Source: Bacillota bacterium (GTDB taxonomy: Bacteria > Bacillota_E > Sulfobacillia > Sulfobacillales > Sulfobacillaceae). From it: a stretch of 9,976 nucleotides of DNA. Every line of letters begins with the position of its first letter. Position 1 is the stretch's first letter. The notes under the pieces were generated by a model that worked only from the letters and a program-made list of their open reading frames with translations, was not told where the DNA came from and ran no database searches. The stretch is taken from NCBI GenBank assembly GCA_021802375.1, contig JAKAAL010000097.1:1-9976 (forward strand), given 5' to 3'. This document shows, piece after piece, positions 729 through 9,976 of this stretch. Both the position numbers and the translations under genes were made by a program.

Positions 729-1718
729 CTACCGAGTCTCTCCAGAACCCTCCGAGTTAAGGTGGGACAAATGATAAATATCCGGAGATTGGACGACGGC
801 ACAGCATTGGCGACCGGACTCTTTGGCCCGGTAGAGCGCGACATCGGCGTGATGATATAAGGTGTCCGGACTATCCCCATCCCGGGGATACCAGGAGACT
901 CCCGCCGAAAATCTGGCCGGATACGTCGGGGCAAAAGATGCAGCCAATCTCTGGAGGCGTTCCACCAGGGGTTGGACGCGGGGAACATCGGCCACCCACC
1001 AGGCAAATTCATCCCCGCCCAGTCGTGCGAAGGCGTCGCCGGTTCGGGCCAAAGACTGTCCGAGTCGGGCAAAGGTTTGCAACACCTCGTCGCCATAGGG
1101 GTGGCCGTGGCCATCGTTGACCCGTTTAAAGTGGTCCAAGTCCATTAATACGAAAGCGGCCGAAGGGATCCGGCTCGCGGCATCGTGTTGGACCCGTTCC
1201 CAGAATCCGCGCCGATTCAAGATCCCGGTCAGGGGGTCGGTCAGCGCCAAGTCGCTCAGCCGGGTAATTTGCGCATTGACGACCACATCATACGTGTCGA
1301 GGGTGACTTTAACGTCCTCGACCCATCTGCGCCGCACAGTGGAGAGCCGCGGCAGAGACGGAGAGGCCGGATTATCGGTGCTAGAAAGATAGACCACAAA
1401 GAGCAAACTGTACACTTCGACATACCATGAGGGGAGCACATGGGTCCGAATGTGGGCAAATCCCACACCCCGGGAGGCATCCAGGGCCTCGGGATCGCGA
1501 GGCGAACCGCAAAAGACGGACCGGTGGGCTTCCAAATGATCCCGGAGCCATTCGGCCGGGTCGTCCCTTGGCGGGATTCGTGCCACCATGTCGTCGTCCG
1601 CGATGATCGTCTCGATGGCGCGGTTACGCCACATCGTATAGAGGAGATGAATGCCCTCTTGATAGGTTTGCCATTGGCGTTCGTCCTCGTCGGACCAATC
1701 CCCGGGTATGTTTCGCAT
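729..1718 (-). CDS. Diguanylate cyclase with probable globin-coupled sensor domain
   Basis: A 329-residue protein predicted to make cyclic di-GMP from two GTP. The GGDEF domain fills roughly residues 155-312: DPLTGILNRR at 161-170, the metal/guanine segment DLDHFKRVND at 193-202, and the catalytic GGDEF at 234-238. The RxxD inhibitory site (RTGD, 225-228) sits five residues before GGDEF, as in product-inhibited enzymes. Residues 1-150 resemble a protoglobin-type sensor: an aromatic helix, HLEAHRSVF at 61-69, then VGFAHIRTHVLPSWYVEVY at 85-103, like the globin-sensor pattern around the proximal haem histidine, which would be His89. No membrane segment or signal peptide is seen, so it should be cytosolic. 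The ATG start is chosen because GAGGTGG ends 5 bases before it. A TTG at 1779-1781 in the same frame, behind a perfect AAGGAGGA (1790-1797), is a possible alternative start adding 21 residues. The cyclase call is firm; the globin call is an inference. Confidence 0.9.
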   Translation of the reverse strand: MRNIPGDWSDEDERQWQTYQEGIHLLYTMWRNRAIETIIADDDMVARIPPRDDPAEWLRDHLEAHRSVFCGSPRDPEALDASRGVGFAHIRTHVLPSWYVEVYSLLFVVYLSSTDNPASPSLPRLSTVRRRWVEDVKVTLDTYDVVVNAQITRLSDLALTDPLTGILNRRGFWERVQHDAASRIPSAAFVLMDLDHFKRVNDGHGHPYGDEVLQTFARLGQSLARTGDAFARLGGDEFAWWVADVPRVQPLVERLQRLAASFAPTYPARFSAGVSWYPRDGDSPDTLYHHADVALYRAKESGRQCCAVVQSPDIYHLSHLNSEGSGETR

Positions 1719-1789
1719 TCCTTCCACCTCTTTTGTATGGTCTCTTTTGCTCTCTTTGAACACCCTAATTCGACACTGCAACCGAAAAA

Positions 1790-1797
1790 TCCTCCTT
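1790..1797 (-). promoter_or_regulatory. Perfect Shine-Dalgarno upstream of the cyclase gene
   Basis: The minus strand reads AAGGAGGA here, the best ribosome-binding site in the window, about 70 bases before the chosen cyclase ATG. The TTG at 1779-1781 lies 9 bases after its AAGGAGG core and is in frame with the cyclase, with no stop between. It either marks the true start or promotes translation of an N-terminal extension. Confidence 0.4.
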
Positions 1798-1898
1798 ATG
1801 AGACACGAATTCAAGCCCACAGGCTCGCTGAGGAGTCATAAAAAAGTGGCCACGGACGACGTGGAGCCCCGACCCCGGCACCAAATCGGGACATTCCG

Positions 1899-2503: not shown

Positions 2504-2927
2504 AGTCTCCCTTGCGCTCCGAGCCGCTTTGACGGCGTTCCCCTTGAACAGCCGGAGTCTTTCTAAAGAAACCAACAACCGGCGCTTTCCCTTGGCAACA
2601 CCAGCCAGGGATTTCTGCCACGGGGATGTCAGTTTTGGTGCGAGAAGCAGATCAATTTCTGATGGATGGTTTAGTATGACTGATGCCCCAACCTGTGGTA
2701 GTTTTTATTGAAACAGACGGTTTATCAGTTTGGGGTCATAGGATGTTGCGCGTTTCATCGGTCGAAAGATACAAGAGACCATCACATCTGAAATTACGTG
2801 CTCGTCTCTTTTTATCTCTCCTGTACACCTCTTCTCCGCACGTTGTGAAGGGCCAACCGCTGATCCTGAAGCAGTGATCCCCTTTAAACAACAATAATTT
2901 CGTGGAGGGGCACGTCAACGAATTCAG

Positions 2928-2932
2928 GGAGG
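2928..2932 (+). promoter_or_regulatory. Shine-Dalgarno of the SIR2 gene
   Basis: GGAGG sits 5 bases before the ATG at 2938 and decides the start. The in-frame GTG at 2902 has only an AT-rich stretch before it and no ribosome-binding site, so the longer form is unlikely. Confidence 0.75.
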
Positions 2933-2937
2933 CCCTT

Positions 2938-4287
2938 ATGTCAAAAGATGCCAATAACGTGAAGCAGGTAATGATTCTCTTAGGGGCAGGAGCCTCACCA
3001 TCTCCTATCCCCACAACTGCCCAATTAACAGAATGGCTTTGCCAAGATTTTAGGCGCTATCGATTGCCTTGCCCGCATGAATCTGCCAACCTCATGTCGG
3101 TATCGGAGCAAGGTGCTCACGATTGGCGTCAACCTTATTTTGGAGCGTTGCATGATTTACTCAAGCGATACTATGGCCGTCATGATTACTTGCTAAATTT
3201 TGAGATGTTATTGCACACTGCATGGCTTATCGGGGAGGCATCTTCGTCTAGCGGAACCCGGTCTCCGCTTGATTCCTTACTTCATCCCTTCTTTCGGTTC
3301 GATGAACAGTTTAGTTCGTTTGGCGGTATGGCAATGGAAGCCCTTGTCGAAGACGCGGGTAATGAAATCCTGAAGTTAATAGCCAAGCAGCAAGATGATA
3401 AGCGCATTCAGATGGGTACACCTCTAGCTCACGGAATTGCCCGTTTAGCAGAGGAAGCAGCGTTGCGGATATTCTCGCTGAACTATGACACCGTTGCTCT
3501 CGTTCGTCCTAAAAAAACATTTTCCGTCCACACTGGATTTAGTTCCGATAGCGCGGAAAACCAACAGTTTCACCCCACATTGGTCCATCAGCGCGAGTCT
3601 TCAGACCATCTCTTTTATCAATTGCATGGCTCCGTGCACTTTGGATATGAGAATGCGACCGACATTGTAAGGTTCAGTTCTTTATGCAATGCCCTTAAAA
3701 ATCGTGATCGTTCGGGGATTGTTACTTTGCCGCACCAAGACCGAACATCGAATATTCGCTTACCGGCTGTTATGGGATTTCGAAAACCTGACGCCATCCT
3801 CCGAGAGCCGTTTTTCTCTTACCATCACGCATTTGTCGAGGAGGCCGTGACCTGTAAACGGTGGCTAATTGTGGGATACGGGGGAGCAGATGATGACATA
3901 AATGCCGTTCTCCGCCACGCCTGGACTGTGCATGAATCGGACGCAGATTTTCGTTGCGTAATCGTGAATTGGCTAGATCCGCATATGTGGGAATATGAAC
4001 CGAATGAAGACGGTTCTTGCCAAGGAGTTATGCACGATTTGGAGTACGGGGACACTCGCATTCACAATCCTCAAATTCCAACGATCTATCCCATGTATGG
4101 TGCTTGGAAACCCCTAAAAGTTGTTGCGGCGGGCGTTCCTGCACCGAAGCGCCAAGCCTTGCGCTTCCGAAAAGGAATACCGCTTCAGAGCCTCGATGAT
4201 GAACGTGTGAAGCTTTCCATTGTTGGGACCGATTTAGCTTTCAGCTGTTACCTCGATGAAATCATGAAGTTTCTGGACATTATGTAA
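2938..4287 (+). CDS. SIR2-like domain protein, predicted NAD-consuming defence effector
   Basis: A soluble 449-residue protein of the SIR2-like (SIR2_2 type) group. The nucleotide-binding motifs appear in order: MILLGAGASPSP at 12-23 (the GAGxS loop), FSLNYDTV at 179-186 with the NYD asparagine Asn182, QLHGSVHF at 228-235 with the catalytic-type His230, and IVGYGGADDDI at 311-321. In defence SIR2 proteins such as ThsA the matching Asn and His are needed for NAD cleavage, so an NADase is more likely than a protein deacetylase; no CxxC zinc cluster is seen. Residues from about 330 to 449 (NWLDPHMWEYEPNEDG onward) match nothing I recognise and may sense the trigger or make oligomers. The gene is more AT-rich than the cyclase and helicase genes, fitting transfer. 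It stands alone and runs towards the methylase/helicase operon, so it is probably an independent module in the same island. The fold is sure; the anti-phage role is inferred. Confidence 0.88.
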   Translation: MSKDANNVKQVMILLGAGASPSPIPTTAQLTEWLCQDFRRYRLPCPHESANLMSVSEQGAHDWRQPYFGALHDLLKRYYGRHDYLLNFEMLLHTAWLIGEASSSSGTRSPLDSLLHPFFRFDEQFSSFGGMAMEALVEDAGNEILKLIAKQQDDKRIQMGTPLAHGIARLAEEAALRIFSLNYDTVALVRPKKTFSVHTGFSSDSAENQQFHPTLVHQRESSDHLFYQLHGSVHFGYENATDIVRFSSLCNALKNRDRSGIVTLPHQDRTSNIRLPAVMGFRKPDAILREPFFSYHHAFVEEAVTCKRWLIVGYGGADDDINAVLRHAWTVHESDADFRCVIVNWLDPHMWEYEPNEDGSCQGVMHDLEYGDTRIHNPQIPTIYPMYGAWKPLKVVAAGVPAPKRQALRFRKGIPLQSLDDERVKLSIVGTDLAFSCYLDEIMKFLDIM

Positions 4288-4465
4288 TTTTCCGACCTAT
4301 ACCATTCACCCCGGTAGGCACTAAGAAGATCTGAAATTTCAACAGACGAATAGGACGGTCATGTTGGACAACGGCTCCGCGTCTTGCGAGGCTTCGTTGA
4401 AAACTCTCACGAGGGAGCGGATAAGAGGCAAGCTTTAGATTGGAACGAGGCGGAACGGAAGCATT

Positions 4466-4817: not shown

Positions 4818-7800
4818 TTAACTGTCTTTGTTCGGACGCCCTATGCTTGCCCACGTCTCTACCAGTTGGCGCACGTCCGGTCTACCGAGGTCAAACCATG
4901 CCACTTCGCTATACTTGTCAAAGACGGCCGGATTCGCCGTCATTAACTGGTACTGGCCGTGCAACAGGATGTCGGCAACGTCCTCTTCACCGTCCGCCAT
5001 CACGCGAGAATGCCCCATCATCTGACCATACAAGGCGACCCATTCACGCATTCGCGACTGAAGCTCCCCGACCTGTCCTGACAGGGTGGTCGCCGTCAAT
5101 CCCGATTTGAGGGCTAAAGTTTGTTCCGCGATCGCCAACCGCTCTTGCTCCTGTTGCAGTCGTTCCACGGCCGTCGCCACCCGACGCCGCCGATCGACGG
5201 GATGCCCTTCAGCCATAATTGTCCCGATGACGGCATCTACCTCGCCCAACACCGCTTGAAGCGGTCCCACAGCGGAGACAAACAAATCCAGACGTTCCCG
5301 TAACGCTTGATACACTAGCTGGTCGACAGAATCTTGATAATAATAGTTATGGACCTGAATCGTTGACGCCTGTTGGCCAATGCGGTCGATGCGCCCAATC
5401 CGTTGTTCCACACGCATGGGATTCCATGGCATATCATAATTAATCAACACCGAACATGACTGTAAGTCGAATCCTTCACTGGCGGCGTCGGTGCATAGCA
5501 GAATGCGCAATGTCTCTCCGAGGCGAAATTCCTCTAATAATGTGGACTTATCCAACGGCACCCAGGTTACACCATCCCAGCGCTCGCCCCCGCGGCCACT
5601 GTAACAAGCCAACCGTTTGCCAAACACGTGGACTAAACGCTCTCGCAAGTGGTCCAGCGAGTCCGTGTATTGGGTAAAGACTATGGCAGAGCGATGCTGC
5701 AACAATAATTGGTCTAAATCACGACGCAACTGAGCGAATTTGCTGTCCGTAGTGATGCTGTCCAGTTCATGCAACAAATCCTGAATACGAGCGAGTTCCT
5801 CAGAACGGGCGTGATCGCCGAACAAGTCTACCGTCTCGTCCGGATCCGCTCCCACCGCCTCGAGCTCAATGGTTTCAAACGCTTCTGGAACGCCATCCCG
5901 AATCCTCTGAAACCGCCGGATGAGGCTCTGATGCGCGGCTGCGAGGCTGCTGGTTAGACGACGTAGATACAAGGTTTTCATAAATCCCAACCCTTTTTTC
6001 GTCATCTCCGCGTTGCGATAAACTTGGACGAAATACGCCTCCAAGTGCTGGTAGGCGATCTGTTCCTCGCGGGACATTGGCACCACAACGTCCTGAACTT
6101 GGCGCTCGGGTAAAGGTTCCTTGGTAAGACCTTGGCGAAAATACTCTTTGAGCAACGATCGCGTATGTCGACTCATCACCCGTTGTAATGGGGTGTGCGA
6201 CGCGGCAACTTGGCTGATTTCAGCCGGGGTCAGCGTCGTCCGTAGGTCGACCGCCATCAATTGCGGATGTTGCAGGGCCTGCTCGATCGCCCATGCCTTG
6301 TTTCCCCCCAGCGCTTGTAAAGTCGTCGTAGAAATGTCCATTCCATAGGCTTTTAGTGTGGCTTGGACGGCTTGAAGGAGCCAGGGGAGCTCCTCCCAAT
6401 GGCCAGCCCGCAATGCGGCTAACGTGCCATAAAACCCCCGAAACCATGTCTCGTCCGACCATGGTCCGTCAATGCCTAACACCCGCAACAAATCGAAGAG
6501 CTCGATCGGATCCATCTGCATCGGGGTTGCAGTCAACAGCAGTTCATGCCGAAATTTGCCGTCTCGGCGCAGTCGTAAAAAGGTCTGAAGGAGCAGGTTC
6601 GGTTTAGGTTTCTTCACACTCTTAAAATCCTCGCGACGGAGATTATGGGCCTCATCAACAACCACCACGTCCCAGACGCACGACGCATCGACCCAGGGCC
6701 GGCGCTCTTTGCGGCTCAATAAAGACTTGGACAATACGATCCATGGAGCCGTGTTGCCGTCTAGGGGATTAGCGACGCCGACATCCCGCACTGACCCATC
6801 GCGATAGGTTAAGGTGCCTCGCTCGTAAAAAGGAACATCCCATCCCCCTTTACTCCACAACTGCTCCTGCCATTGGCGCATCAGTCCCGCAGGAACCGCA
6901 AACAATACCCGCTCGGCTTCTCCGCGAAGTTTTAAACTACGCACAATCAGAGCGACTTCGATGGTCTTGCCGAGGCCCACCTCATCACAGAGCAACCGCC
7001 GAATCGGGGTTTGCACCCACGCATCACGGAGCACGGTCACCTGATGAGGCCAGGGAGTTAAGGGAGAGGTAGATATCGTCTGGCTGACCAAATCCAGCGA
7101 TTGAAACTGCGTTAGGATGTCCTGAGACAATACGGTTAAGGCGTACGTAGAGGGATCCAGAGATGATACCGACTCTTCATGATGGGCGCCTGAAGTTTCC
7201 CGCTGTTGACTGAGGAACGGTTCCTCAGTGGGTTCCCAATCCTCCGCCGGAATCCATGTCAGCAACTCCTGCCGCAGGGCATCCGGTAATGATAGAACCC
7301 GGAGCATGGGAGACTGACCCGTCCAGCGTCGTTCAAACGATTCCGCATCCGCAGCTACATGGGCGGTCTCACCTGCCCGCCATGAACCAAAGACATGGAA
7401 GTTTTCAATATTGGCCGTCCAACCATGGGCAGACTCGTTTAGACTCCCACTAAAAGCCAGGCGCTCCCCGACCTCATCAACAAGGAGTCCGACCTTGGGA
7501 TGATACAGGGCGGCTGCCGTTAAGGGAATCCCAATGCGAATTTCGAGGTACCCTTCCTTGAGGAGCCACGCCAACATGTGGAGCCGTTCGCAAATGAGCA
7601 GATCGGCCGGCACATCCCACCGGGACCGAATGTCTTGTACCACGCGTTCGGTAAGCTCCCGGTCACTCATCGCCTCATAATCATCTTCCGTGAGCTGGGC
7701 GCTCGTTAACAAACGCACAGCCGGTCGGGCAATGAGATTCTGTCGCGCTCGAGTGAATAGAGCGGAGAATCCTTCAGCGGCAACAGCGAGGGCTGTACTG

Positions 7801-7925
7801 CTAAAGTATCCGGTCTCGCGCGCATAATGGGTCGCTGTTTGGAGTGCCGGAATATAAAAATCTCGCACCAGTTCCGCACTATCCGACGCATAGGCCACGC
7901 CCCAATCCCGGTCGGCTAGTCGCAT
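4818..7925 (-). CDS. PLD-like/SNF2 superfamily helicase, defence type
   Basis: A cytosolic 1,035-residue ATP-dependent DNA translocase. Residues 1-230 look like a phospholipase-D-type module: YHPKVGLLVD at 141-150 followed by FSGSLNESAHGW at 158-169 resembles HxK...D...GSxN, but five residues separate Lys144 from Asp150 instead of four and only one such motif is seen, so nuclease activity is uncertain. The SNF2 motor follows: PWPHQ at 291-295, Walker A DEVGLGKT at 314-321, DEAH at 424-427, TATP at 465-468, then in the second lobe IVFTQYTDSLDHL at 748-760, LLCTDAASEGFDLQ at 809-822 and the arginine-finger motif QRIGRIDRIGQ at 841-851. All key residues are intact. Residues 915-970 are likely coiled coil; the tail is unassigned. 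The ATG directly follows the methylase TAA, with GGAGGG (7932-7937) 6 bases before it, so the two are translationally coupled. A remodeller or translocase in a methylation-linked defence system is the likely role; the exact system is inferred. Confidence 0.93.
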   Translation of the reverse strand: MRLADRDWGVAYASDSAELVRDFYIPALQTATHYARETGYFSSTALAVAAEGFSALFTRARQNLIARPAVRLLTSAQLTEDDYEAMSDRELTERVVQDIRSRWDVPADLLICERLHMLAWLLKEGYLEIRIGIPLTAAALYHPKVGLLVDEVGERLAFSGSLNESAHGWTANIENFHVFGSWRAGETAHVAADAESFERRWTGQSPMLRVLSLPDALRQELLTWIPAEDWEPTEEPFLSQQRETSGAHHEESVSSLDPSTYALTVLSQDILTQFQSLDLVSQTISTSPLTPWPHQVTVLRDAWVQTPIRRLLCDEVGLGKTIEVALIVRSLKLRGEAERVLFAVPAGLMRQWQEQLWSKGGWDVPFYERGTLTYRDGSVRDVGVANPLDGNTAPWIVLSKSLLSRKERRPWVDASCVWDVVVVDEAHNLRREDFKSVKKPKPNLLLQTFLRLRRDGKFRHELLLTATPMQMDPIELFDLLRVLGIDGPWSDETWFRGFYGTLAALRAGHWEELPWLLQAVQATLKAYGMDISTTTLQALGGNKAWAIEQALQHPQLMAVDLRTTLTPAEISQVAASHTPLQRVMSRHTRSLLKEYFRQGLTKEPLPERQVQDVVVPMSREEQIAYQHLEAYFVQVYRNAEMTKKGLGFMKTLYLRRLTSSLAAAHQSLIRRFQRIRDGVPEAFETIELEAVGADPDETVDLFGDHARSEELARIQDLLHELDSITTDSKFAQLRRDLDQLLLQHRSAIVFTQYTDSLDHLRERLVHVFGKRLACYSGRGGERWDGVTWVPLDKSTLLEEFRLGETLRILLCTDAASEGFDLQSCSVLINYDMPWNPMRVEQRIGRIDRIGQQASTIQVHNYYYQDSVDQLVYQALRERLDLFVSAVGPLQAVLGEVDAVIGTIMAEGHPVDRRRRVATAVERLQQEQERLAIAEQTLALKSGLTATTLSGQVGELQSRMREWVALYGQMMGHSRVMADGEEDVADILLHGQYQLMTANPAVFDKYSEVAWFDLGRPDVRQLVETWASIGRPNKDS

Positions 7926-9976
7926 TTATAACCCTCCATTCTCCGAGGCCAAATCGAGCGTTATTTGCTCGAGCACCTGACTGGTATGACGGAAATGGGC
8001 CACAGCAAAGGACTGCAGCGCCTTCCACTCGGGACGAACACGCGGAATGGCGAGAAGGCACGCGTCCACCAGGGCTTGAAACTGCGGGTCATTCAAGAGA
8101 TTATACCGTACCAAATATTGACTCGCCACGGTTGCGCCATCCCTTTGGTGCCGATTCAGCGCAAGGTGCAGACCATCCAGCAGGGATCCGGGGGATTGAT
8201 CACCATCACCCCGTCGGTGCCCATCCATGCGGCCCTCAGGCGATTGCAACACCACATACTTACCTGACTTGGTCGCCACCCCCTGTTCCTTAATGATGGT
8301 GCGGTCCAATTCGATCCCACACGTCATCGCGAGGAGACGGGCTTCGTCATACGGAAATTTTTCGGCCCCAAAGACATCCCAGGCGAGGAGGTACCAACGA
8401 GTGATGGGATCGAAAACCACTTGGCGATGGTGCACCAATTCCGTGACACGCAACTGAGTAACCAACGACCGGGCTTCTTCTAGCACACGCTCTGGTTGTA
8501 CCAATTGCCCCGTACTATCCTTGACAGGCCAGTGTTCGGACAGGACCTGCAAGGCGGGTCCGTAGGTCGCCAACATCAAATCCAGCTTGCGAAATCCTTT
8601 TGCCTCAAAGGCCTTGGCCCGCTCAAGCACGCGATCGCGAACCAGTGGCAGCAATTCATCCCACCATCCTCCCTGGGAGGCTTCGCGCTTCCGGCAAACC
8701 AGCATAATGGTGCTCTCGGCCGCATTTTTATTGGCAATGTGCATGCTGTGTTCCGACTCCGTGTGTACCGGCCACGACGCAGTAATTTCAAATCCCGCAT
8801 GAATCAACGCCGACGCTAAGGTGTCCCACGCCTCCACCCGCTTATGGGTAAACATCAGTGTCAACACGCCATCATCTCTTAACACCCGGTATATCTCTTG
8901 AAACACCTCTTGCATTTTTTCCTGATAGTTTTGCTCCGCTCGTTTTTTGGGCTTTATGCCTCGCTCTTCGGAAAACAACGACGGATTTGCCACGGCCTCA
9001 CTAGTCTTGTCGGTAAGCTCTTCGAGAAACACTTCGGGATACAGATCTCCTATCGTGCGTTTTTGCCAGACATAGAAGAAGTCGGCCATCTCCGCATACA
9101 TCACGTTGTCATAATAGGGAGGATCCACCACGACCGTGTGGACGGAGCCATTAGCAATGTCATAAAGATCGGTGGCTGATCCGAGACGTACGGTAGGTTC
9201 GGTAGTCTCTCGCTCAAACCATTGGATATTCTCTTTATCTCCCAGTAATCTGCACAAGCTCGCGTACGCATCGACGACTTGGTCCACGGCCCAATCAAAA
9301 CCCATACCTGGTGTGGTTAAATTCATTTCAGCGAACGACCACTTAAAGGAATAATCGTGGCGATCGAAAGTGCCAGCGATCACGGTTCGGGAAGCATGCC
9401 AACGAGTCATACGCGAATTGTAGTCGCATGTTTTGTCGAAAGCGAATGCTAGATACGTTAGAATTGCACGTGCTTCGGCAAAAGTATGTTTAGCCAACAC
9501 TTCGGCTTTTACTTCGTGAAACGCCTCGAGATAAGTTATTAGGCTTAGGAGCTGACGAGGTGAAAACATATCTTTCCATTGGGACATGCCGTATTGAGTG
9601 GGTCTGGCATCGTTTGTTATGACGGGATAGGCCTCATTGGGTATCCACCCCTTGTCGTTCCAATTCGGCGCATTGTGTTCCAACATATTCATGGCGACCA
9701 AGACAGAATCTTCGTCCGCGGGGGTCGGTTCTCGAAATTCGCCCCCACCCTTGACTTTAAGGGCCAATGCATACAATTGAAGTCCTAATCCCTTAGTCTG
9801 CGCCTGGCGCTTTATAACGTCGCCTTCAAAAACGTTGTGGCAACGCGGGCATATCCCCGCACCTTTTTTGACGGTGCCCTGTTCCGGATCCAATACCTCT
9901 CGCGTTAAATCCACAACATGGGGAACCAGTTTGTCCCCCGCTCCCTCAATCCATTTGACGGCTATCTTTTGCTTTG
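7926..9976 (-). CDS. DUF1156-type DNA methyltransferase, partial (5' end beyond window)
   Basis: The last 682 residues of a large DNA methyltransferase predicted to methylate adenine N6 or cytosine N4. Counting from the first full codon, a CPRC zinc-type pair lies at 42-45, YGMSQWKDMFSPRQLLSL at 128-145, and the catalytic VVDPPYYDNVMYAEMADFF at 282-300. The DPPY motif is that of amino-methylases. LTLMFTHK at 371-378 fits the strand near the end of the catalytic fold. FDPITRWYLLAWDVFG at 521-536 and the RQLL segment are features I associate with the DUF1156 family. The AdoMet-binding FxGxG motif, expected nearer the N terminus, is not in view and should lie upstream. The reading frame stays open to the window edge, so the GTG at 9912-9914 is not taken as the start. 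It is co-translated with the helicase downstream. In such cassettes the methylase probably marks self DNA. Family call is fairly sure; target base and sequence are unknown. Confidence 0.9.
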   Translation of the reverse strand, partial: KQKIAVKWIEGAGDKLVPHVVDLTREVLDPEQGTVKKGAGICPRCHNVFEGDVIKRQAQTKGLGLQLYALALKVKGGGEFREPTPADEDSVLVAMNMLEHNAPNWNDKGWIPNEAYPVITNDARPTQYGMSQWKDMFSPRQLLSLITYLEAFHEVKAEVLAKHTFAEARAILTYLAFAFDKTCDYNSRMTRWHASRTVIAGTFDRHDYSFKWSFAEMNLTTPGMGFDWAVDQVVDAYASLCRLLGDKENIQWFERETTEPTVRLGSATDLYDIANGSVHTVVVDPPYYDNVMYAEMADFFYVWQKRTIGDLYPEVFLEELTDKTSEAVANPSLFSEERGIKPKKRAEQNYQEKMQEVFQEIYRVLRDDGVLTLMFTHKRVEAWDTLASALIHAGFEITASWPVHTESEHSMHIANKNAAESTIMLVCRKREASQGGWWDELLPLVRDRVLERAKAFEAKGFRKLDLMLATYGPALQVLSEHWPVKDSTGQLVQPERVLEEARSLVTQLRVTELVHHRQVVFDPITRWYLLAWDVFGAEKFPYDEARLLAMTCGIELDRTIIKEQGVATKSGKYVVLQSPEGRMDGHRRGDGDQSPGSLLDGLHLALNRHQRDGATVASQYLVRYNLLNDPQFQALVDACLLAIPRVRPEWKALQSFAVAHFRHTSQVLEQITLDLASENGGL
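7932..7937 (-). promoter_or_regulatory. Shine-Dalgarno of the helicase gene, inside the methylase gene
   Basis: The minus strand reads GGAGGG here, within the codons for the last Asn-Gly-Gly-Leu of the methylase. Six bases (TTATAA, the last Leu codon plus stop) separate it from the helicase ATG. The abutting TAA-ATG arrangement indicates translational coupling and supports the helicase start. Confidence 0.8.

What the first reader, a model, noticed from the sequence alone, without database searches (positions are those of the whole stretch)
4818..9976. Methylase plus PLD-SNF2 helicase operon: part of a probable DISARM-like defence system
Seen: an amino-methyltransferase with DPPY and DUF1156-like segments is directly coupled to a helicase carrying a PLD-like module and intact SNF2 motifs. 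Known: DISARM combines a methylase, SNF2 helicase and PLD protein, and DUF1156 methylases recur with DUF499 ATPases and helicases in defence islands (from memory). Inference: this is the end of a larger operon whose remaining genes lie past 9976 and whose fused PLD-SNF2 architecture may make it a distinct variant.
Basis: partly seen in the sequence, partly recalled or inferred. Interest (0 to 1): 0.7.

Follow-up and report, generated by a model that had tools for sequence, protein, structure and literature searches.

The report
Sulfobacillus methylase and nuclease-helicase defence operon
The window holds the last two genes of a four-gene, restriction-like and probably anti-virus operon of a Sulfobacillus-like bacterium; it belongs to an already described class of defence systems and not to DISARM, and its one unusual feature is a small fourth protein that the defence catalogues searched here do not list.

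Summary
In detail: two coupled minus-strand genes, an N6-type methylase (9974-7926, cut by the window's end) and a 1035-aa fusion of a PLD-family (HKD) domain with an intact SNF2 helicase (7925-4818). A near-identical assembly (1453 of 1454 bases over 8523-9976) runs past the window's end and shows the methylase N-terminus, a 146-aa DUF7680 protein and the C-terminus of a DUF499 ATPase. S. acidophilus carries the complete operon DUF499-DUF7680-DUF1156 methylase-PLD/SNF2. The layout recurs across phyla: of 80 loci fetched, 66 hold DUF499 upstream, 64 of them with DUF7680. This is a DUF499-centred restriction-like system, described in 2020 (Bell), 2021 (Hma) and 2026 (BREX-related). The DISARM label fails: no DrmA, DrmB or DrmC in the operon, helicase far below the DrmD cut-off; though S. 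acidophilus has a separate DrmA/DrmB gene row nearby. The PLD-SNF2 fusion is not new. Less ordinary: the small protein is DUF7680, not the DUF3780 that marks published Type-2 systems (0 of 80 loci), although predicted topology and weak profile similarity suggest remote kinship; and the core proteins score far below the Type-2 models. Modest interest: a widespread variant of a known kind. Anti-phage function is inferred, not shown.

The parts
7926..9974 (-). DUF1156-family N6-adenine-type DNA methylase, C-terminal 682 aa; the 5' end lies beyond the window
   Evidence: HmaB 186.4 bits; NF042963 151.2 bits, cut-off 1000
9840..9851 (-). CPRC, one half of a possible Cys4 zinc finger
   Evidence: Cys residues 42 and 45 of the fragment; zinc binding inferred
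9114..9125 (-). methylase motif IV, DPPY
   Evidence: invariant in the 23 rows
7919..7935 (-). methylase stop TAA abutting helicase ATG, with GGAGG upstream (translational coupling)
4818..7925 (-). PLD (HKD) - SNF2 helicase fusion, 1035 aa
7434..7502 (-). HKD-type motif H142-x-K144...D150...GSxNE of the PLD domain
6006..7004 (-). SNF2 N-terminal motor lobe with Walker A (DEVGLGKT) and DEAH
5376..5720 (-). Helicase_C lobe with motifs V and VI (QRIGRIDRIGQ)

Best explanation
The two genes are the 3' half of a four-gene operon - DUF499 AAA+ ATPase, DUF7680 small protein, DUF1156 N6-adenine methylase, PLD-SNF2 helicase - that is a DUF499-centred (Hma-like, 'BREX-related') restriction-like defence system of a Sulfobacillus-like bacterium. 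Most likely mechanism: the methylase marks a short motif in host DNA; the DUF499 ATPase, perhaps with DUF7680, loads on or scans DNA that lacks the mark; the SNF2 motor moves along it and the HKD domain, probably as a dimer, nicks or cuts it. Shown here: operon content and order, intact motor and HKD motifs, methylase motif IV, wide conservation. Inferred: methylation target, self/non-self logic, cleavage, the role of DUF7680 and anti-phage activity itself.
For: A conspecific contig overlaps the window end (1453 of 1454 bases) and adds DUF7680 and the DUF499 C-terminus. Full operon in S. acidophilus. Of 80 loci fetched, 66 have DUF499 upstream on the same strand, 64 of these DUF7680, and 55 of the 56 that also have the helicase downstream. 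Models hit are defence families: PbeA, DrmD, PLD_Helicase, HmaA, HmaB, HmaC. Defence-type neighbours in S. acidophilus and a SIR2-like gene in the window. Same core trio described as a predicted restriction-like system (PMC7641849 passages; PMC12839542 sections 29, 30, 33).
Against: No experiment on this branch. Curated NCBIfam cut-offs are missed by far (339.9 of 1100; 151.2 of 1000 for the fragment; 252.1 of 1000 for the full-length P0129). The L118 fragment itself gives no Pfam or PADLOC hit for DUF499 and rests on 52% identity to the S. acidophilus protein; a PF04465 search of G427 found nothing. The PLD domain is below Pfam's cut-off. The window's own contig past 9976 was not seen, only a near-identical one.
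Confidence: 0.75

Rival explanations
1. Same operon, but a replication block rather than cutting: the PLD-SNF2 protein and DUF499 bind and stall unmarked DNA, as PbeABCD is reported to do.
For: PbeA is the best PADLOC match, over residues 4-442; PbeA has a PLD domain plus helicase, and DndCDEA-PbeABCD stops replication without cleaving viral DNA (PMC6459918, passages). Bell 2020 predicted that DUF499 might interfere with replication of foreign DNA (passages).
Against: H, K and N of the HKD motif are each kept in 73 of 75 sequences and D in 72, which suggests catalysis. No Dnd or other Pbe match among the S. acidophilus proteins tested (one L117 protein has a marginal PbeC match, E 2.7e-4).
Confidence: 0.2
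2. A DISARM system or DISARM variant.
For: The helicase resembles DrmD (PADLOC 214.4 bits; NCBIfam 237.7). S. acidophilus has DrmA and DrmB genes in a gene row that starts about 5 kb downstream of its helicase, and a C5 methylase upstream that matches DrmMII models (152.7 bits) though DruM better (286).
Against: DrmD cut-off is 610 bits. No DrmA, DrmB or DrmC in the operon. The DrmA/DrmB row is separated by genes on the other strand. The DUF1998/MZB search found only that one gene in G336 and none in G427. The operon has DUF499 and DUF7680, which are not DISARM genes (DISARM gene set recalled).
Confidence: 0.03
3. A canonical Type-2 BREX-related system with a DUF3780 that is merely diverged and has its own Pfam name, DUF7680; nothing beyond a new member.
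For: Same gene order as annotated DUF3780 operons. AlphaFold models of the two families show the same order of elements. Profile-profile score above 28 of 28 decoys in both directions. The 2026 paper mentions ASCH-fused DUF3780, and ASCH-fused DUF7680 occurs here (L001).
Against: DUF3780 profile 0 of 80 loci. Weak statistics: E 0.019 and 0.0044, and one decoy nearly equalled the first (score 20.9 against 21.8, E 0.017). Models were not superposed, and the DUF3780 model is of middling confidence (pLDDT 73.4). Core proteins score 93-209 bits on PADLOC's Type-2 models, where DUF3780-type proteins score 999-1451.
Confidence: 0.4

Closest known systems
Type-2 BREX-related (BR) systems: DUF499, DUF3780, DUF1156 methylase, HKD-Swi2/Snf2 helicase (PMC12839542; outline, passages and sections 29, 30, 33 read; NCBIfam NF042962-NF042964)
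   Same: Core trio, gene order, HKD domain fused N-terminal to the SNF2 helicase, small fourth protein between DUF499 and methylase
   Different: Small protein is DUF7680 by profile, not DUF3780; core proteins far below the curated models
Hma / Type-1 BR systems (PMC8565338, passages; PMC12839542 section 29)
   Same: DUF499 and methylase match HmaC and HmaB better than the Type-2 models
   Different: Annotated examples have the order helicase-methylase-DUF499 (L137, L138, L140, L141), no DUF7680 in L140/L141, and no nuclease was found C-terminal in the window helicase by Pfam
SWI2/SNF2 helicase fused to PD-(D/E)XK or PLDc + COG1743 methylase + DUF499 (Bell 2020, PMC7641849, passages)
   Same: Exactly this trio, PLDc version named
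   Different: No DUF7680 or DUF3780 is mentioned (0 occurrences of DUF3780); reported there with EVE proteins in archaea
PbeABCD (PMC6459918, passages)
   Same: PbeA: PLD domain plus helicase in one chain; best PADLOC match of residues 4-442
   Different: Works with DNA phosphorothioation (Dnd), other partner genes, no methylase
DISARM
   Same: Methylase, SNF2 helicase and PLD activity in one system (recalled)
   Different: No DrmA, DrmB or DrmC in the operon; DrmD cut-off missed

Membership tests
DUF499-centred BREX-related (Hma-like) class | DUF499 AAA+ ATPase gene in the locus | tested here: met
   S. acidophilus: PF04465 112.1 bits. Window's conspecific: C-terminal 401 aa, 52% identical to it, no Pfam hit of its own
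DUF499-centred BREX-related (Hma-like) class | N6-methylase with DUF1156 | tested here: met
   P0122 and P0129 over the PF06634 cut-off; window fragment HmaB 186.4 bits
DUF499-centred BREX-related (Hma-like) class | Swi2/Snf2 helicase | tested here: met
   PF00176 and PF00271 over cut-offs
DUF499-centred BREX-related (Hma-like) class | phage restriction and host methylation | not testable with these tools
   needs experiments
Type-2 BR | N-terminal HKD nuclease domain in the helicase in place of TUDOR | tested here: met
   Pfam PLD models below cut-off
Type-2 BR | DUF3780 gene (98% of published taxa) | tested here: not met
   PF12635 in 0 of 10 genomes, no control rang; own DUF3780 profile 0 of 80 loci while finding both reference operons; DUF7680 in its place, probably a remote relative
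Type-2 BR | NCBIfam equivalog cut-offs NF042962-NF042964 | tested here: not met
   242.2 of 1200 (L009), 252.1 of 1000 (P0129), 339.9 of 1100 (window)
Type-1 BR / Hma | helicase with N-terminal TUDOR and C-terminal PD-(D/E)XK nuclease (79%) | tested here: not met
   N-terminal HKD domain instead; no further Pfam hit in the helicase
Type-3 BR | PglZ in the locus | tested here: not met
   no PglZ among 8 proteins around the S. acidophilus operon
DISARM | DrmA, DrmB, DrmC core (recalled) | tested here: not met
   none in the operon; DrmA and DrmB occur in a separate gene row nearby in S. acidophilus
DISARM | DrmD helicase | tested here: not met
   237.7 bits, cut-off 610
PbeABCD | Dnd phosphorothioation genes and PbeB-D | tested here: not met
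   no Dnd match among the 8 S. acidophilus proteins and 6; one marginal PbeC match (E 2.7e-4)

The most novel reading that the evidence does not exclude
The DUF7680 operons are a lineage of their own among DUF499-centred systems, neither Type-1/Hma nor DUF3780 Type-2: an HKD-SNF2 effector combined with Hma-like methylase and ATPase, with DUF7680 (ASCH-fused in some loci) as hallmark adaptor or reader of modified bases. It would be a fourth, widespread subtype missing from the catalogues, and perhaps the link between Type-1 and Type-2.
Probability: 0.35. Interest if true: 0.5.

Novelty: new variant of a known kind. Interest (0 to 1): 0.33.

Why it matters
It replaces a DISARM label by the right class and supplies the missing half of the operon. 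It also shows that DUF7680, which no PADLOC or NCBIfam model matched in the proteins tested, is a near-constant partner in a widespread branch of DUF499-centred systems (64 of 66 loci) and probably a remote relative of DUF3780, whose role is unknown. That makes the function of the small fourth protein of these systems directly testable.

Tried and rejected
Rejected: DISARM, Type-3 BR and PbeABCD membership (see the membership test); a broken pair of genes (both frames are open and the motifs conserved).

Led nowhere: a viral-contig scan with the methylase fragment found nothing. No solved structure resembles the methylase fragment or the L009 DUF499 by sequence. The DUF7680 model has no convincing PDB match (best E 0.19). 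The tree position of the branch is unsure: the trees are unrooted, long branches meet, and DUF7680-type DUF499 is not separated from Type-1.

Counting notes: ORF clustering first gave DUF7680 in 49 of 80 loci, because longer opposite-strand ORFs hid it (my inference); a six-frame search gave 64 of 66. That profile was built from the 50 cluster members plus three more sequences, so its hits in those loci are not independent. Of the two misses, L039 has a DUF7680 hit that my position rule did not accept and L070 has none. The DUF7680 model used 34 of 39 short plus-strand cluster members (dropped: L017, L034, L046, L049, L076); the DUF3780 model used 28 of the 120 listed proteins. The 75 helicases are the window, S. 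acidophilus, two DUF3780-type, 66 of 71 cluster members and five close relatives. The trees used random samples of DUF7680-type rows (30, 18 and 18) plus named rows. In the Type-1 group the L130 row is a gene annotated only as a HEPN protein.
Full report
WHAT IS THERE. On the minus strand lie a methylase fragment (9974-7926, 682 aa, open at the window's end) and a 1035-aa helicase (7925-4818). The methylase stop TAA abuts the helicase ATG, with GGAGG just upstream, so translational coupling is likely. The helicase has SNF2 and Helicase_C domains over Pfam's cut-offs and unbroken Walker A, DEAH, motif III and motif V/VI sequences, checked column by column in 75 aligned sequences. Its N-terminal part is a PLD-family domain: H142, K144, D150 and the GSxNE segment are kept in 70-74 of 75, and a 17-row profile of this part finds mitochondrial cardiolipin hydrolase, a PLD-family enzyme, at E 2.8e-4. 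In the window protein itself Pfam reports no PLD domain, and in two relatives PLDc_2 stays below its cut-off. The methylase carries DPPYYDNV.

WHOSE IT IS. Apart from near-identical copies, the closest proteins are 57-82% (helicase) and 69-84% (methylase) identical; those that carry a source name are Sulfobacillus. No genome is held for the window. Searches of 398 genomes of one phylum and 42 of one order found two close relatives: G336, whose proteins read like those named S. acidophilus TPY, and G427, whose contig C235 matches window 8523-9976 at 1453 of 1454 bases.

THE MISSING HALF. The G427 contig runs 2572 bases past the window's end. It encodes the rest of the methylase, a 146-aa DUF7680 protein (PF24728, 119.7 bits) and, at its far end, 401 residues that match residues 603-997 of the S. 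acidophilus DUF499 protein at 52% identity. This fragment has no Pfam or PADLOC hit of its own and a PF04465 search of G427 found nothing, as it would if the ATPase part of the gene was not assembled. S. acidophilus shows the whole operon: DUF499 (999 aa), DUF7680 (144 aa), DUF1156 methylase (923 aa), PLD-SNF2 helicase (1028 aa).

HOW WIDESPREAD. A helicase relative is found in 72 of the 80. DUF499 lies upstream on the same strand in 66; 64 of these have DUF7680 upstream too, and so do 55 of the 56 that also have the helicase downstream. Record titles name many phyla, archaea included. In the order of G336, DUF7680 occurs in 2 of 42 genomes, G336 and G427, and DUF499 in 10 of 42; two of those loci (L140, L141) have the order helicase-methylase-DUF499 and no DUF7680.

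NEIGHBOURHOOD. In S. acidophilus the operon follows a Vsr endonuclease, a C5 methylase and a UvrD-PD-(D/E)XK protein. A separate row of six genes starts about 5 kb downstream and includes DrmA (649 bits) and DrmB (261 bits), about 12-17 kb from the helicase's end. In the window a SIR2-like gene (2902-4287, +) faces the helicase. This looks like a defence island.

WHAT IT IS NOT. Not DISARM: no DrmA, DrmB or DrmC in the operon, 237.7 bits against the 610-bit DrmD cut-off, no DrmM match for the methylase. Against this stand a PADLOC DrmD score of 214.4 bits, close to the best helicase models, and the DrmA/DrmB genes nearby, which lie beyond genes on the other strand.

WHAT IT IS. DUF499, DUF1156 methylase and SNF2 helicase-nuclease form a known predicted restriction-like system. 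Bell et al. 2020 describe it, PLDc fusion included (PMC7641849, passages). Payne et al. 2021 name the trio Hma (PMC8565338, passages). Rakesh and Krishnan 2026 call it BREX-related and define Type-2 by an N-terminal HKD domain and a DUF3780 gene, found in 98% (PMC12839542; outline, passages, sections 29, 30 and 33). That paper says that a later study confirmed phage defence by the HmaA helicase; I could not read that study.

WHERE IT DIFFERS. By profile the small protein is DUF7680, not DUF3780: the DUF3780 profile matches 0 of 80 loci but both reference operons searched with them. The word DUF7680 occurs in no paper of the held library (one search; open-licence PMC only). The two families may still be related. 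AlphaFold models (mean pLDDT 94.6 for DUF7680, 73.4 for DUF3780) share the order three strands, helix region, strand, four helices; the DUF3780 model adds one helix. The models were not superposed. Profile-profile scores exceed 28 of 28 decoys in both directions, but E-values are weak (0.019 and 0.0044) and one decoy came close (score 20.9 against 21.8, with E 0.017). The core proteins are far from the Type-2 models: seven DUF3780-type proteins score 999-1451 bits on PADLOC's three models, the proteins of this branch that were scanned 93-209. DUF499 and methylase score higher on HmaC and HmaB than on those models wherever both scores were shown. In three unrooted trees the DUF3780-type and the Type-1 proteins are each one fully or nearly fully supported group. 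DUF7680-type helicases and methylases group with moderate or weak support (91/95 and 83/65); for DUF499 they are not separated from Type-1 (one side of a branch in 10% of bootstrap trees). A separate subtype is possible, not shown.

MECHANISM. Most likely restriction-like: the methylase marks self, DUF499 with DUF7680 recognises or loads on unmarked DNA, the SNF2 motor moves along it and the HKD domain cuts it. One HKD motif was recognised per chain, and single-motif PLD nucleases such as BfiI act as dimers (recalled), so a dimer is expected. The main alternative is a block of replication without cutting, as reported for PbeABCD, whose PbeA has the same PLD-plus-helicase build (PMC6459918, passages). 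Operon content, motifs and conservation are shown; function is inferred.

VERDICT. A real, probably defensive operon, well spotted and wrongly named: a DUF499-centred system with DUF7680 where the published Type-2 has DUF3780. A variant of a known kind, of modest interest.

Noticed in passing
window 2902-4287 (+): SIR2-like gene (PADLOC Aga_SIR2 50.6 bits; Pfam SIR2_2 below cut-off) facing the helicase; distant matches in 2 of 42 genomes of the order, none in G336 or G427.
   Followed up: partly
window 729-1820 (-): GGDEF diguanylate cyclase with a sub-threshold protoglobin match at its N-terminal side: perhaps a globin-coupled sensor.
   Followed up: no
L117:2283-14622: Six closely packed genes in S. 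acidophilus, with a UvrD-like helicase, DrmA and DrmB; the first has no PADLOC match. Possibly an unusual DrmAB system.
   Followed up: partly
L009:9546-9965 and relatives; P0241: DUF7680 and DUF3780 probably share a fold (same order of predicted elements) and have no clear match in the PDB for DUF7680.
   Followed up: partly
L140, L141: Other members of the same order carry DUF499 systems in the order helicase-methylase-DUF499 without DUF7680.
   Followed up: partly
L128:3281-17169: In a Picosynechococcus plasmid the same operon is split by toxin-antitoxin and other small genes between DUF7680 and methylase and between methylase and helicase.
   Followed up: no
window 4318-4422: A 105-bp stretch after the helicase gene recurs at 84% identity on another contig of G427 (C211), so it may belong to a repeated element.
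   Followed up: no
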